Source: Eudorina sp. 2006-703-Eu-15 (taxonomy: Eukaryota; Chlorophyta; Chlorophyceae; Chlamydomonadales; Volvocaceae). Taken from it: DNA of 64,000 nt. The position numbers and the translations under genes were made by a program. The first letter of the stretch is position 1, and the number at the start of each line of letters is the position of its first letter. Below the pieces are notes generated by a model. That model made no database searches, was not told the DNA's origin, and saw only the letters and a list, made by a program, of their open reading frames with translations. The stretch is taken from assembly GCA_003117195.1 (NCBI GenBank), contig BDSI01000003.1, positions 1,478,491 to 1,542,490 on the forward strand. The letters run 5' to 3'. This document shows, one piece after another, positions 29,605 to 38,928 of this stretch.

Positions 29605-32599
29605 TCACGGCCTGAAGCGCAGGTCCATGTCGGAAGAGTACAGCTCCGCATCCCCGAACCCTCCACGTGGGCCCCGGGGGATGCTGCCGCCGCCGCCGCC
29701 GCCGCCGCCCATCGCGCCCGCCCACTGCCCCTCCAGCTCCCCCGTCGCACCGGCGGCTGCCGCCTCCGCCGCCTCCGCTGACGTCACCACCTCCCGCCCG
29801 CCCGCCAAATCCCAGGCCGCGGCCGCCGCCTCCTCGTCGCCCATCTCCGCCAGCACCTCCGCCACCGTGGGGCCCACCGCCCGCAGCAGCGCGGCGCGCC
29901 CGACCTCGCAGGCCGCGCGCAGCGTGGGCGGGTCGCGGCACAGCGGGTGGCAGCCCGCGGTGTTCTCCGGGAAGAGCGGGAGCACGTAGGCGCCCTCCGA
30001 GCGCTGAAACTCGAGGGGGCAGCCGTAGTACGACGCCATAAGCTGCTCCTCCTTCAGGTTGGGGTTGGAGAGGTCCAGGGGGGAGTCCGCGACGCGCCAC
30101 GCGTCCCGCATGTACGGCGCGTTGAGCACCGTGGTCTTGACGAGGACCTGCGGTGGCGGGGAGGGAGCACCGGTTGGCGGTTAGCGGTTGGATGTTGGCG
30201 GTGTCAGGTGGTGGTTGGAGGTGGGGTGGGGAGGAGGGTCGCGGTGTGGCGTGGAGGAGGGAACGCAGGTGTGGCTTAAACACATCTTGAACACATCCAG
30301 TCAGCTTGCACGTCCACTGCAACGCCGCCGCCGCCTCACCTCGATGGTGCTCCGCACCCGGTCCCCCCACACGCTCGTCTTCTTGGGCGTCACCGGCCGC
30401 GTACACAGCACCAGCACGTGGGTGCACCCGTCGCGAATGGCGGACGGCAGCGGCACCGGCTCGAACACCGCCGCGTCCACCAGCGTGCGCCCCCGCACCG
30501 TCCGCGGCGGGCCCGCCAGCTGCGGCACCGCGGCGGTGGCCTTGAGCGCCTGCGCCAGCTCCGCGCGGTCCGCGAAGTCGGACAGCAGCACCGGCTGCAG
30601 CGTGTCTAGGCAGGAGGCCACCACCTTGAGCGGCGTGGGCGAGGACAGCACCGCGTCCCAGTCCAGCGGCTTGCTGGTGTTCATGACCTGGGGCGGCGTC
30701 ATGGCAAGGGACGTGCCGCGGGGAGGCGGGTCATGGTGCGGCCGTCCAATCTTTACGGTGCTGAAGACTGGTGTTACATCGGGCCGTTTGGTTGTGATTC
30801 GCTTTCGGGGCGCCGGTTCAGAGCTGGGAGAACAATCAGATGGGCCTCGTGGCAAGAGATACATTGGTAGCTTCATTCTGATGAATATATATATATATAT
30901 ATATATATGTATTCGGGAGTGTTCTGCCATCATCTCTCAGAGTGCTTATCTATATCTCATGGTGCGGCCGTCGAGCAACTCTGTCGGCTGCCGGCCCTCC
31001 GAGCACTGCCACCCCCGGGTCTGCCCCACGGTCGCGGCTCGTCCCACCCCCGCTGGCACTCGGGGGGGGGGCTGATGTAAGTTGAGTAGGCAGCTGCAAC
31101 CCCCGAGTCCGTCCCCGGTGTCCGAACCTCCCCAGGTCCCAGCTCCCGGGTCCGCGTCCCCGGGGCTCCTGCCGAGGTGTGGTCTGACCTGATCGATGAG
31201 GAAGTCGATGTTCATGACCGGTCGGGAGGCGCCCGAGAACAGGTTCCTGCGGCTCGGAGGGGGCAGGGTGCGCGGTGGGTTGGTTGGCAGCAATGCAAAC
31301 AAACGGAGTAACGGACAACGGCCCCTCGAGTCGCGTCGATGCCGCGGATCCGACAGCGCGTGCCAGGAATGGTTCCGCACAGCAGCCGGCCGTTTGGCAC
31401 TCAGCAGCGCAGGGGGGTGTAAGGAATTGGTAGACATTTTTTCAAACTGCGATGCTGCCAGAGCGGCGTTTCGACTGGAGAAATGAAAGCGCAGCGGGGG
31501 GTCACGAAGCAACGAGGCGGTCAGCGACGCGGCCCGTCATGGCCGCGTCATGGCGCTGCACTTCAGTACGACGGACTTGGAATGTACGGTGTACTGCAAT
31601 GTACTCTTTCCCCTCTCACACTGCAATGCACTCTTTCCCCTTCCGCACTCACCGAAAGTCCAGGAAGCAGTTGCCCTGCGTCAGATCTTCGTGGTATATA
31701 CGCAGCCCGTGCTTCTGGCGGGAGAGGTAGTAGGTCGCGTTGATGGCGCCCGCGGAGGCGCCGTACACCGAATCGAACACATCAGTGAGCCCCAGCTCCA
31801 ACAGCCCCATCAGCATGGCGCCGCTCAAGCAGCCGCGCATGCCGCCGCCCTCCACGACCAGACCCAGCCGGCAGCCGTCCGATCGGGCGCCGGGCTTGCT
31901 GCCGGTGCGCAGCCGCGACGCAATGAGCTGCAGGGTCGGGTGGTCACGGCTGGGCTGCGGGTGCGGCCGCTGGTGGTGGCGCGGGTGCGGGTGTTGGCGC
32001 GACAGGAGGACCGCTGAGGTGGGGGCCGAGGTGGAGGGACGATTGCGTGAGCTGTGGGGGTGGTGGTGCTGATGGTGGTGGTGCTGATGGTGGTGCCGTT
32101 GGCGGGGGTGCTGGTGATTGGCGTGGCTGTGGCTGTTGCTGTGGCCGTGGCCGTGGGCATGGCTGTCCTGCTGGTGCTGGTGCTGTAGCTGCTGCTGCTG
32201 AGACGGGAATTCCTCAGCAACGTCTGGGGCGGATTGGTGGAGAGGGTTTGGGCTGTCGCTGCCGCGGGAGGAGCGGTGAGGACCAGAGTGAGACTGGGAT
32301 GGATGGTGGCCGCGTACTGCGCCCCGGCCCGATGGCGATGTCGGTGCGATGCGCGGCTCCGGAGCAGCGGGCCGCTCATCATGGTCAGAGACTGGAAGGA
32401 TTGGTCGGTCGCTCTCCGATACGGTGGGAGCTGCCGGAGTGCATGACGGAGACGCGGGCCCGGGCGGTGCAGCTCCCGGCACCAGATTGCGCAGCTGCTG
32501 AATGCGTTGTGATATTGGGAAGGCTGCGCTTTTCGCGAGCTTGCGAATGCCAGAGTCCGTTGGTTCCTGCTTGCAGTGAACGGGAGTCGCGGCCCGATG
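29605..32599 (-). CDS. Patatin-like phospholipase / acyl hydrolase, 5' end unresolved
   Basis: Four minus-strand exons join in phase: 32599(or less)-31653, 31246-31189, 30687-30340 and 30147-29605 (TGA at 29605-29607). The catalytic fold is clear: oxyanion loop GLVVEGGGMRG, nucleophile elbow YGASAG (GxSxG), and the catalytic Asp in LVDAAVFEPVP, a DAA variant of the usual DGG/DGA. These make a Ser-Asp dyad that hydrolyses acyl esters of membrane lipids. The first exon encodes a long Pro/Ser/Gln-rich leader with an extreme His-rich stretch (about 32010-32170), which could bind metal (inference). That exon is open up to a stop at 32600-32602 without an in-frame ATG, so the true start must be in an upstream exon; CAG at 32567-32569 is one possible acceptor. 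The C-terminal exon has a Gly/Ala-rich segment and ends in MDLRFRP. Intron 1 holds a copy of the dispersed intronic repeat, and intron 2 holds an (AT)n tract. Confidence 0.85.
30885..30908. repeat. (AT)12 microsatellite in patatin intron 2
   Basis: Pure AT dinucleotide run inside intron 30688-31188. Confidence 0.95.
31415..31469 (+). repeat. Dispersed intronic repeat, copy 1
   Basis: Reads ...GGAATTGGTAGACATTTTTT followed by CAAACTGCGATGCTGCCAGA and GCGG. Inside intron 1 of the patatin-like gene. Related copies are at 33595, 44747, 45528 and, inverted, 56401. Confidence 0.75.
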
Positions 32600-33431: not shown

Positions 33432-36400
33432 TCACATGAACTTGAGCGCCATGTCCTTGCCCGCGTCCTTGAGCTGCGGCGCCGCCCGCCCCACCCCCGC
33501 CAGGTCGTCCACTCCGGAAAGCTCCGACACGGTGCCGGTCTCCAGGAACTCCTGAATCTGCGTGTGCATTTTTGTTGTGTGTGGGATGGAATGAGGGTAC
33601 AGGAAATTGGTACAGGACATATTTTTACTGCGCTGCTGCCAGAGCGGTAATGTCCTATATAGACTCGACTGTTGGGAGGGGGCGTGGATCCGATGGACTG
33701 TTTCCTGTTTTGCGGTTCCGCTGGCTTGATTGACTAAAGGGGGGTGTGAATCCGTGTCAGCATGATTGACAAAAGCGGGGTGAATCCGGGTCAGTGAATC
33801 CGTGTCAGCACCTTGCGACTTACCTCCAAAACTGAATGCCATGACGGGCACCCAGCCTCGGTCCCAGGCGCCTGTCGAGTGCCCACAGTTCCCCCTTTCC
33901 CATTTCCATTGTCCCCTTCTTTCTCAGCCCAACTAAACCCACTGCGGGAACGCCCTGCATGCCCCCGGCTCAAGTCCGGACCGGACACCGATGCGTGCGC
34001 GCGACTCCGCCACCCTCCGTCCTTTCGGGAAGATGGTGGCGAGGCCCTGATGGATGCGGGAAACCCCCGCAGCGAAGAAACACCTCGCCCGCCCGCCCAC
34101 CAACCGACCTCGCCCGCAGCTAAGGTACACTGCGCCCGCCCGCCCACCCGCCCGTCCGCACCTTGGCCAGGGAGCCCTTGCCGACGCCCTGCAGCTTGCC
34201 GACCTCCTTTAGGTTGCCCAACGCAATCTGCGCAGCGCGACAAGTGCGCCAGGCAAGATACAGCCGGGTCCGGTGGGGAGGGGGAGAGGAGGGGCGGGCC
34301 AACAAGCAGCTCACGACTGTGGACAAAGCGCGCAATGGGGGTACCGTACTGCACGGCACAGTTGTACTACGGTACGAACGCTTCCTGTGTGACCCGTTCT
34401 TGCTGCGTCTCCACGAGCGACCTTGCCTTCCCAGCCCCATCCCATCCCCAGGCAGCCCAACACTGCGTCGCCACCCGAAAACCAACCAACCCAATGACCC
34501 ACTCAAAACCCCACCCCGACGGCCTCACCTTGGCCGGGAAGTCCGCGAGCACCGCCGCCACCTTGTTGAACGAGATGGCCTTGAACTTGGCCTTCCCGTC
34601 TGCACCGCACCGCACCACAACAAGCGGGCGTTAAACAGATGACACGATGTGAGGATGCCAACAGCCGGAGGTGGGGGCGCTTCGCAAGTGACATGCCGGC
34701 CTGCCAGCTACTGCCTCACGGCATCCGTCCGCGCCGAGATCGCCGCGTCGTGGCTATGTGCCGGCCTGGGCCTTGTAACGCGAGGCTGAAAAGCGCACTT
34801 GATGTTGAGGGGCTCGATTTCCTGTTACAGGCCTAAAGCCGCGCCACATAACATCATGCCGTGGCAGCTGCATTCAGCCACGCCTCACATCACCACATGC
34901 TCAGCCACCCGGCCACCCGCTGGTCCTTCGGGGCCGGGCTGCAATCGTGCATCTAGTTCCCCTCGCGGCCAGGTTGCTCCCTGGCACGAGCCCCTCATCC
35001 CTCATCACACACCTCCTCAGCCCCTACCCATGTGGCTCCAAAGACTGGGCAACAGATAAGATGGCCACGGGGTGCACACAAGGCAGTCCAGTCGCCGTTC
35101 GTAAGATATGGTCGGCCGTCCTGCCCCGCCGCCGCCCTGCCCCGGGCAGCCAACATCTGAGAGGCGAGCGGCCCCTCACCGTCCGTCACCTTACCTATTT
35201 TGGCCTCCTCGAAGCCCTTCTCCGCCAGCTGGCTGAACACGTTGACCAGCGCGGCGTTGTCCGGGTTCACCGCCACCTGCGTCAGCAGAGCGGGCAACGT
35301 GAGGGCGGACGGGACCCGGGTCAGGCCGGCGCACGCACACGAGGCAGGGAGGCAACAACGCGTGTGCCTGCAGGTGCGCTTTGACCGCCGCGCCTCCGGC
35401 CGCTGCGGCCGAGGAACTGCAGGCACCCGACGCAGCGTGGAAGCGCCACCCCGCCCCTTCTGAATGGAGGACGCTGGGTGACTTGGGAGGCCCTCCAGGC
35501 TTTGTGTCCCCGGAGGACGGCGACCGCCCCTTCGCGGCACCGCAGAGAGGGGGGCCCACAGCACTACGTGACTAGGGCTGTCAATCAGACGGGGCGAATC
35601 CGGACGGGGCGAAGGAAGCGCCAGGGACAGGAAGAAGATAAAGAGGGGGCGCAGCCGCTGCGCCCGCTCCAGGGAGGAGCCCGACTGACTCACCGGCTTG
35701 CCGCCCTCGCCCTTGTTCTTCTTCATGACGCCCGCGGGGAGCGGCCGCTTGCCCTCCATTTCCCTGGAAGAGCCGGGTTGTTCAGATCAAACCAGGCCAA
35801 ACAAGTAACCAATCAGACCATATCGAAACAAATCAGTGCTGGTCAGGTCAGACCCAAACAGGAGGGGCGAACAAGAGCCTGACCCGGACCCGGAGGGGCC
35901 CCCCCCGCCCCACCAGGGCGACAGCGAGGCGCTGCTGGACATCGTCTGAGACTCCGGGTTGATGAATAACCAGCCAGCCAACTGGCAGCCGCTGCGACAT
36001 GCTGCCGTGGTGTGGACCGATCGACATACAGTCGCGGTCTCGTGGCAGGCAGTCGTCGCCCATTGGCTTCGGGGTCCGGGTTTTGGCTGTGCCAATCATC
36101 AGGACGTGCTATCCTCCGACGGCCCCCTATCCCACCCTGCCCCCCATCCCACGCCTCCCAGTGTCCCAGACTGTTTGCCCTCTCCCTCCGCACCCGAACG
36201 CCTCCGCCTGGACGACCTGTTCGGGGGCGGCCATATCCCACCCCACCCCACACCGCCCACACGTGGTGCCCCTTCTCGCCCCGCACCCGAACTCCTCCTC
36301 GGGCGATCGGAACTCGATGCCCACGTTGGCGGCGAACCCCTTGTCGCTGTCCGCGAAGTCGCCCGGGCGGCCTCCCGCGTCACCCACGTAGAAGCTCTCC

Positions 36401-38928
36401 GACAGGTCTGCACCGAACAACCCAGTCACCCGGCCGACAGCCAGCAAACCGTGGGACGAAGCGGAACGACTTCGTTGGGTTACATGACACGGGTACCGGG
36501 CGCGCAAAACTCATGCGGGGTTACGTGAGATCAAACGCCATGCCAGAACATTGACGCTCAGTCCCCGGATACCTGCGTTCCTCTCCTTGCTTAACAACCT
36601 CCTATCGGCTCCGCATGCCGATCAAGACAGCAAACATCTATCGGCCCCGGCCCATACACACACACGTGTTCTTCGGGTGCCACCTACTCCCGTCGCCTGT
36701 ATCCCCTACTACGCTGAACTTCGCTCCTCGCGGCTCAGTGCCCTTTTACACACGTTTCAAGCAGCAGCACCAGCAGTGTCGCCCCGCGAGACGCACCTGG
36801 CTGCACGCCGCCGTTGGCTCGCGCACAGAAGAACTGCCACATGCCCGTCTGGGGCTTGCGGTTGTGGTCGTCCAGCGTCGCCATGAACACCTGCACGGGG
36901 ATCCCCAGCTGCGAGGACGGGAGGAGGAGGATGGGGGGAGGGGAGGAGGGACAATGGGGACCCGCGCGCGCGATAAAAGCACCCTGTGAGATTTCTGGCC
37001 GGTCCAGCCTGGCAAGAGTGCAGCTAACGGCGCGGAGGCTACCCACCCCGACTGAAACAACAGTGCCGCGCTTTGGCCCTCGGTCTGTTCATGTACTTTC
37101 GCACAAAGCGTCGCGGCAGCGATCCCGGTGGCGCGCAACGGTGGAAAGCTGCGGGGCCGGCTGTCTGGTGTGCTCGAAACCACTGTCCTGGCCTAGTCTG
37201 ATCTGGCTTCAAACGAAGGAAGTGTCGCGCTATCAACAACAACAGGGAAGGAACCTACAGGCGGATACGGTACTACAGGACGTTGGTGGTGAAATACTCC
37301 CATCTGCGCGGACTGCCAGAGCAAAGGTCCGGTGGACAACGGACTGCACCAGGATCTCCAGCGAAGTGGCAGCGGAGGGGCGCTCGACGACGGGGGCCCG
37401 ATGTTGCGACCCACCTGACCGACCACGGCGTCCACCCGGCCCTTAACCTTGTCCGCCGCCTTCCCGGTCACCGCGCTCTTGATGCTCCCCTGGTTGCTGC
37501 ACACCGCAACGCGCCGAACAGCGGTCCGTGGCACAACACGATGGCACACGAGCACCACGTCATCAGACGGGAGGGCACACATCCGGGGCATCGCGCCGCG
37601 CTGTGGGCTCCCGGCGGTCAGAGCGCGGACATTCCTCCGGCCCCCGCCCGCATCCGTGGCAAAGCCTGTCACCACGTGGTAGGGGACGCCCTGTTCCGCA
37701 GTCGGCGCGAACCCTACACGCGCACAACCCCCAACCCCAGATCGCTACACGCGCACAACACACGGATTATGACTCACGTGAAGATGACCACCTTGTACCC
37801 CGATTCGTGGTACGACTTGATTTTGGCGGCCGTGCTCTTGTTGAACCATTTGTAGTCCGACTCGTCCTTGGGGAACTGCGCCCCGCTCTTGGTGTTGACC
37901 ATGGTGCCGTCCTGGGGAGGGGGAGGGGAGTGGGAGGAGGAGGCGATAGGGCAGGCACCAATATCATCCCGGAGGGGGACGTCATGAAGTCATGACGCAC
38001 ACTGCAGACAGGTTGATATGGCGTGTGCTCGTGCGGGTGGAGGGCGGTGCGGTTGCGGGGCGGATAAACGCCGCAGCGACCGGCTGGAGGACCACATTAG
38101 CGCTTGACGCGCCATGAGTGAATGAATGAATGACGCATGTAACAGGCATGCGGAAGGGGAGCGTGTGAAGGGGTGCAGCTGACGCATTTGGGTATTGCGT
38201 TCGTGTGGTCTGTGATGGGGGAGCAGCAGCGAGCCGAAGGATAGCAGGCTGGACCGGATGTTCCGACGTGGGCTGCCCTGGCGCCGCACGACAGGGTGTT
38301 TGTGAACCCAGATTGATGACTTCAGGTAACGACAAACAGTACCCACTTGGAAACATGCACTTCAGGAAGTCAAACGGCTGAATCTGATCTTTCGGTGGGC
38401 GATGGGTGCATGTACGCCGGATGTCGTGCCCAAACACATAATGACCGAAAAGCAGACCCATGTGATTATTTCCTTAACACGTTCTATAGTGGGTGGGAGC
38501 TGGTCGTGCAGGTTGTCGGCGTCGGCGAGAGTCACGCTCCGGTCAACGCCTACGACACTTTTCCCGCCTCACCAAGTCAAAAGCAGCAATCTTGTCATTC
38601 GGTTGTGGGTTGCCATAAGTCCTGTGACGGCGAAATGCAAGCCATTTCCATTTCAGGGTTCCAACATAACGGGAAGAACGATCCTCTGGGCAACCGCTTA
38701 CTTGTAAAGGAGGGACGGCGGCTCAAATGACCAACCCGAAGCACTTGTAAACGCAGCCTGCGCTTTCTTCGGCTTTGGTGGCGCTCTGGCCTTCTTCTTG
38801 GGCTTTTCCTCCTCCTCACTTTCGTCCTCCAGCGGGACTTCCTCGTCACTCAACACCTCCTCATCGAGCTCCTCCTCAGACTCGTATTTACGAGAACGCT
38901 TTGGCGCACGTTTAGGACGGTCGGACAT
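33432..38928 (-). CDS. DNA 3'-phosphatase (PNKP-type) fused to a Pol-beta-like lyase/HhH domain
   Basis: Eleven minus-strand exons join perfectly in phase to 379 codons: 38928-38702, 38621-38573, 37911-37778, 37496-37415, 36908-36797, 36407-36287, 35763-35694, 35276-35195, 34599-34529, 34227-34162 and 33557-33432. Residues 1-60 are a Lys/Arg/Glu-rich tail, likely nuclear. Residues about 65-240 are the PNK3P HAD phosphatase: catalytic FDLDGT (D91, D93; split by intron 2), IFTNQG (about 135-140), DDHNRKPQTGMW (177-188) and FYVGDAGGR (207-215). It removes 3'-phosphates at DNA strand breaks. The kinase half of animal PNKP is absent. Residues about 266-379 resemble the 8-kDa N-terminal domain of DNA polymerase beta, including HhH GVGKGSLAKIQEFLETG. 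Its Lys338 aligns with the Schiff-base lysine (Lys72) of human Pol beta. No polymerase palm follows. Base-excision or single-strand-break repair is the expected role. The gene is divergent to the kinase gene, 458 bp apart. Confidence 0.9.
33595..33668 (+). repeat. Dispersed intronic repeat, copy 2
   Basis: TACAGGAAATTGGTACAGGA then CATATTTTTACTGCGCTGCT and GCCAGAGCGG. Inside intron 10 of the phosphatase-lyase gene. Confidence 0.8.

What the first reader, a model, noticed from the sequence alone, without database searches (positions are those of the whole stretch)
33432..38928. DNA 3'-phosphatase fused to a Pol-beta-like dRP-lyase/HhH domain
The eleven exons join without any phase conflict. 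The N-terminal half has all PNKP phosphatase motifs (FDLDGT, FTNQG, DDHNRKP, GDAGGR). The C-terminal ~115 residues look like the 8-kDa domain of DNA polymerase beta, and Lys338 aligns with the Schiff-base lysine. Neither the PNKP kinase nor a polymerase follows. Known plant 3'-phosphatases (ZDP) instead carry PARP-like zinc fingers. One chain could combine AP/dRP lyase cleavage with removal of the resulting 3' block, a compact end-cleaning enzyme.
Basis: partly seen in the sequence, partly recalled or inferred. Interest (0 to 1): 0.75.

Follow-up and report, generated by a model that had tools for sequence, protein, structure and literature searches.

The report
Algal DNA phosphatase with gap-binding tail
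Green algae make a DNA-repair enzyme that strips blocking phosphates from broken DNA and carries, in the same chain, a domain like the gap-gripping part of DNA polymerase beta; the fusion is real and shared among green algae, but whether that domain also cuts DNA is unproven.

Summary
The 11-exon minus-strand gene (38928..33432) is real: all 10 introns are GT..AG and the frame stays open for 379 aa. The protein is a PNKP/ZDP-type DNA 3'-phosphatase (PNK3P, E 1.5e-52) followed by a Pol beta/lambda-type 8-kDa helix-hairpin-helix domain (HHH_8, E 2.3e-10). A predicted model of the Volvox reticuliferus orthologue fits Pol beta residues 10-88 at 1.4 A. It is no gene-model artefact: 48 listed database proteins carry both domains, and the 22 with a species name are all green algae. 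Phosphatase residues are invariant. The proposed lyase lysine, Lys338, is not: K in 32 of 52 proteins, at least 8 changes on a tree. Lys333 is better kept (47 of 52) and, by spacing, matches the lysine that Arabidopsis Pol lambda prefers for dRP lyase where its Lys72 position is His. The genome also has family-X polymerase genes. Best reading: a 3'-phosphatase held on short gaps by its 8-kDa domain. Lyase activity is possible but unproven; the proposed coupling is chemically doubtful, because Pol beta-type cleavage of an AP site leaves a 3' sugar fragment, not a 3'-phosphate.

The parts
33432..38928 (-). whole gene, 11 exons, 379-aa protein
38702..38928 (-). exon 1: Lys/Arg/Glu/Ser-rich N-terminus, probably disordered, with possible nuclear localisation signals (by eye), and lead-in to the phosphatase
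   Evidence: mean pLDDT 47-48 in the ten-residue blocks of residues 1-40 of the orthologue P0001
36289..38593 (-). PNK3P domain, residues 86-241, over exons 2-6 (introns included)
   Evidence: E 1.5e-52
38576..38578 (-). Asp91, predicted phosphatase nucleophile (FDLDGT)
   Evidence: D in 48 of 48 aligned sequences
37909..37911 (-). Asp93, second aspartate of FDLDGT
   Evidence: D in 48 of 48
33531..35261 (-). HHH_8 (Pol beta-like 8-kDa) domain, residues 271-347, over exons 8-11 (introns included)
34177..34179 (-). Lys333 of the GVGK hairpin, conserved; same spacing as Arabidopsis Pol lambda K255
   Evidence: K in 47 of 52; spacing argument from PMC10787897
34162..34164 (-). Lys338, position of Pol beta Lys72; last codon of exon 10; not conserved in the family
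33435..33449 (-). C-terminal tail ALKFM (permissive pattern A/G/V-x-x-F/L-M/L/I/V, optional final D)
   Evidence: 38 of 42 sequences; chance expectation not estimated

Best explanation
It is the PNK3P-type DNA 3'-phosphatase of a volvocine green alga. The phosphatase half removes 3'-phosphates from DNA ends. The C-terminal 8-kDa domain binds the 5'-phosphate side of a short gap and holds the phosphatase on the opposite margin, so that the gap left by beta,delta-eliminating (Fpg-type) glycosylases becomes fillable. Shown: gene structure, both domains, invariant phosphatase motifs, fold match to Pol beta, a fusion shared by many green algae, and exon-level matches to Fpg-type glycosylases in the same genome. 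Inferred: the substrate, gap anchoring (by analogy with the 8-kDa domain of family-X polymerases) and nuclear location.
Confidence: 0.6

Rival explanations
1. A two-sided gap cleaner: the 8-kDa domain is an active dRP (or AP) lyase that removes 5'-dRP, with Lys333 as the usual nucleophile and Lys338 as an extra or alternative one, while the phosphatase removes 3'-phosphate.
For: Arabidopsis Pol lambda has dRP lyase with His at the Lys72 position; K255A nearly abolishes it (PMC10787897, section 17 and part 1 of section 19). K255 lies 5 residues before H260, as Lys333 does before Lys338. K333 or K338 is present in 51 of 52 proteins. The window protein has both.
Against: Lys338 changes at least 8 times on the tree, and the Lys60 and Lys68 positions are Gly in the window protein. 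P0039 (Pedinophyceae) has neither lysine. The pattern of K333 and K338 fits independence (Fisher p 0.65, 48 sequences). A lysine in a DNA-binding hairpin can be conserved for binding alone. A family-X polymerase piece from the same genome keeps Lys at position 72 (read by eye), so no new lyase is needed. The cited paper also says K255 aligns with Pol beta K60, which conflicts with the spacing argument.
Confidence: 0.27
2. The HHH domain is mainly a protein-protein or chromatin docking module, and the phosphatase finds its substrate through partners such as XRCC1.
For: A short C-terminal pattern ending in F/L-M/L/I/V is present in 38 of 42; the FHA domain of PNKP binds XRCC1 in mammals (PMC10573277, passages).
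Against: Glycines and lysines of the hairpin (G332, G346, G330, K333, K323) are among the ten best conserved of the 70 HHH columns.
Confidence: 0.1
3. Two genes merged by the exon model.
For: Volvox carteri public models are split here; P0009 and the transcript P0040 lack the HHH part.
Against: 48 listed database proteins, 3 from a transcript collection, have both domains in one chain. The second V. carteri model keeps the HHH part up to the exon 10 boundary and then runs into the patatin-like gene.
Confidence: 0.02

Closest known systems
[quoted passage not shown]
   Same: Kinase-less PNKP-type 3'-phosphatase with an added module that may sense breaks
   Different: ZDP has three PARP-like zinc fingers (PMC10573277, passages); here a C-terminal 8-kDa HhH domain and no zinc-finger match in the protein
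Animal PNKP
   Different: No FHA and no 5'-kinase domain here
8-kDa domain of DNA polymerases beta and lambda
   Same: HHH_8; rmsd 1.4 over 79 residues to Pol beta; family profile E 2.9e-16 for beta and 7.5e-12 for lambda chains
   Different: No polymerase follows; the Lys72 position is not conserved in the family; the Lys60 and Lys68 positions are Gly in the window protein
Phaeocystis globosa virus PolX
   Same: Precedent for base-excision-repair steps fused in one chain, including an 8-kDa dRP lyase (PMC5537341, start of abstract and passages)
   Different: Polymerase-lyase-ligase; no phosphatase in what I read

Membership tests
PNK3P DNA 3'-phosphatase (PF08645, TIGR01664) | Curated score reached | tested here: met
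   Window protein 178 bits, Pfam cut-off 22; for TIGR01664 only orthologues were run: P0001 152, P0003 163, P0039 110 bits, cut-off 107.65
PNK3P DNA 3'-phosphatase (PF08645, TIGR01664) | Catalytic motifs DxDGT, S/T-N-Q, RKP, GD | tested here: met
   D91, D93, N138, Q139, K182, P183, G210, D211 in 48 of 48
Bifunctional PNKP | 5'-kinase domain | tested here: not met
   No kinase Pfam match; P0001 has 149.6 bits against cut-off 502.8 for TIGR01663
Bifunctional PNKP | N-terminal FHA domain | tested here: not met
Plant ZDP | PARP-like zinc fingers in the same chain | tested here: not met
   No zf-PARP match in the protein. A genome-wide search found none, but its control was silent, so that part is inconclusive
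Family-X 8-kDa domain (HHH_8) | Profile score and fold | tested here: met
Pol beta-type dRP lyase | Lysine at the Lys72 position in the window protein | tested here: met
   Lys338
Pol beta-type dRP lyase | That lysine conserved in the family | tested here: not met
   K in 32 of 52
Pol beta-type dRP lyase | Lysines at the Lys35 and Lys60 positions | tested here: inconclusive
   Lys35 position met (K299); Lys60 position reads Gly326, next to a two-residue insertion (column 326 is K in 8 of 42; equivalences read by eye)
Pol beta-type dRP lyase | Schiff-base activity | not testable with these tools
   needs borohydride trapping
DNA polymerase X | Fingers, palm, thumb | tested here: not met
   none listed

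The most novel reading that the evidence does not exclude
A single-chain enzyme of green algae that clears both margins of a one-nucleotide gap: 3'-phosphate by its PNKP-type half and 5'-dRP by an 8-kDa lyase freed from any polymerase, using the GVGK lysine (Lys333) as plant Pol lambda appears to do rather than the Pol beta Lys72 position.
Probability: 0.27. Interest if true: 0.72.

Novelty: new variant of a known kind. Interest (0 to 1): 0.5.

Why it matters
DNA 3'-phosphatases seem to need a module that finds nicks or gaps: FHA-XRCC1 in animals and PARP-like fingers in land plants. Green algae appear to have solved the same problem with the 8-kDa domain of a repair polymerase. If so, that domain is a portable gap anchor. 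The natural variation at Lys338 and Lys333 gives ready-made variants for asking which lysine makes an 8-kDa domain a lyase, a question raised by plant Pol lambda.

Tried and rejected
Gene-fusion artefact: rejected because the architecture recurs in many algae. Replacement of a lost family-X polymerase: there was no DNA_pol_B_palm hit in the genome at E up to 1, but thumb hits on C21, C23 and C37 and lambda-finger hits on C21 and C37 and HHH_8-like pieces show family-X genes are present, so this story was dropped. A six-frame HHH_8 search of the genome gave one weak hit (C237, 20.1 bits) and missed even this gene, whose domain is split over exons, so it says nothing on absence; the fetched C237 region was not studied and C23 only pattern-scanned. 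Mus81-type HHH (UniRef names mention MUS81): the profile's hits in solved structures are Pol beta and then lambda; no Mus81 is among the 60 shown of 117, which does not exclude it. Viral origin: 61 viral loci encode PNK3P relatives at 25-40% identity; all reported matches lie within query residues 46-244, none in the HHH part, but the flanks were not searched for HHH_8. A region search with the HHH part alone found 6 proteins, all close relatives including the broken V. carteri model, too few to trace the domain. Co-variation of Lys333 and Lys338: not significant. Single origin of the fusion: on a PNK3P tree of 82 rows (33 fused, 49 chosen unfused; quick method, many open forks) the label needs 3 changes, starred branches force 1, and one unfused row (P0057) sits inside; one origin is neither ruled out nor proved. 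Position 338 against its domain: it ranks 23rd of 70 columns by majority share and 38th of 70 by number of changes, so it is an ordinary column, not an unusually variable one. DME-type RRM_DME: one hit below the cut-off, left open. Both wide protein searches scored only the roughly 8000 candidates sharing most words, so lineages without the fusion cannot be named. Papers: searches listed no title or abstract start describing a PNK3P-HHH_8 fusion (one search listed none, mostly unrelated strings); the library is open-access only, and the Chlamydomonas BER paper cited by others is not held.

Full report
Gene. The minus-strand gene 38928..33432 reads as 11 exons with 10 of 10 introns GT..AG and one open frame of 379 codons. 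The genome is a 181-Mb assembly in 3033 contigs. The closest listed proteins are from Volvox reticuliferus (78%) and Pleodorina starrii (73%), so the window is very likely from a Volvox-like alga (inference).

The fusion is shared. In one search, 41 of the 120 proteins listed (of 361 matches) carry both PF08645 and PF14716; one search adds 7. Of these 48, the 22 with a species name are all green algae: volvocine and other chlorophycean, trebouxiophycean and one pedinophycean (lineages from general knowledge); the other 26 bear no species name. Three come from a transcript collection. Three further proteins were kept in the alignment: P0126 and P0045, whose HHH_8 scores are below the cut-off, and P0044, by alignment only. 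Some records lack the HHH part: V. carteri VOLCADRAFT_121502 (marked partial) stops inside the phosphatase; VOLCADRAFT_121503 starts just before the HHH part, follows it to the exon 10 boundary and continues into a patatin-like sequence (HHH_8 24.7 bits, below cut-off; Patatin 34.1 bits); the Edaphochlamys model P0009 ends just before it; and transcript P0040 has another C-terminus. A similar patatin-like open frame lies next door in the window (31649-32599 minus; likeness judged by eye).

Is it a lyase? In 52 sequences (window plus 51) position 338 is K 32, I 9, Y 4, V 2, R 2, L 1, A 1, gap 1. On a tree of 48 of them (P0036, P0044, P0189 and P0200 left out as incomplete or gapped) the K/not-K state changes at least 8 times, against 4 for Lys333 and 3 for K/R at 299. 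The phosphatase residues D91, D93, N138, Q139, K182, P183, G210 and D211 are 48 of 48. Within the HHH domain G332 and G346 are 48 of 48; position 338 ranks 23rd of 70 columns by majority share and 38th by changes. Pol beta uses Lys35, Lys60 and Lys72 for lyase catalysis, and family-X members without the activity (Pol mu, TdT) lack the Lys72 equivalent (PMC5537341, passages). Here only the Lys35 position (K299; K or R in 48 of 52) is well kept. This argues against a Pol beta copy.

Why it is not closed. Arabidopsis Pol lambda has His260 at the Lys72 position and is still a dRP lyase, with K255 the preferred residue and K248 contributing (PMC10787897, section 17 and part 1 of section 19). K255 lies five residues before H260. 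In the algal family the residue five before 338 is Lys333 of the GVGK hairpin, K in 47 of 52, and 51 of 52 have K333 or K338. This equivalence rests on spacing; I did not align the Arabidopsis sequence, and the same paper also states that K255 aligns with Pol beta K60, which conflicts with the spacing. So lyase activity through Lys333 is a fair minority reading.

Chemistry. A Pol beta-type lyase acting on an intact AP site by beta-elimination leaves a 3'-unsaturated aldehyde, which a 3'-phosphatase does not remove; a 3'-phosphate needs beta,delta-elimination, as by Fpg/MMH (general knowledge; plant FPG to ZDP hand-over in PMC6728418, passages). The sequential model in the finding is therefore doubtful. 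Independent cleaning of two margins (5'-dRP and 3'-P) is chemically sound.

Setting. The PNK3P hits found in this genome fall in three exons of this gene. Fapy_DNA_glyco matches over the cut-off lie on C81 and C126; H2TH matches on the same contigs are just below the cut-off. Together they are consistent with two Fpg-like enzymes whose 3'-phosphate products this protein could serve. Family-X polymerase genes are present: one on C21 with a lambda-finger match (68.6 bits) and an HHH_8 piece (25.5 bits, below the cut-off of 30) that keeps Lys at the 72 position, and one on C37 with a weak HHH_8-like piece (17.1 bits) with Val there (positions read by eye; scores). A published view is that Chlamydomonas reinhardtii has Pol lambda plus sequences similar to Pol mu and TdT (PMC10787897, passage).

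Verdict. A real, widely shared and, in the searches made, undescribed architecture: a kinase-less 3'-phosphatase with a family-X gap-binding domain. The phosphatase is near certain by homology, the gap anchor is the best reading, the lyase is open.

Noticed in passing
33435-33449, and orthologue C-termini: The last residues follow the permissive pattern A/G/V-x-x-F/L-M/L/I/V (optional final D) at the extreme C-terminus in 38 of 42 sequences, beyond the HHH domain; a possible docking peptide.
   Followed up: partly
31649-32599 (minus): Patatin-like open frame just downstream; in Volvox carteri public models the HHH part is joined by annotation to such a neighbour (P0058), giving a probably false HHH_8-patatin protein.
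   Followed up: yes
literature, PMC4878875: Corals are reported to hold a PNK3P gene of algal origin by horizontal transfer (passages read). Whether it kept the HHH_8 domain was not tested.
   Followed up: no
L012 (C21) and L013 (C37): Two family-X polymerase genes in the same genome, one with Lys and one with Val at the Lys72 position by eye; a third, on C23, is suggested by thumb matches.
   Followed up: partly
C163:79997-80173 (L081): Strong H2TH match (65.1 bits) with no Fapy_DNA_glyco match listed on that contig; identity not worked out.
   Followed up: no
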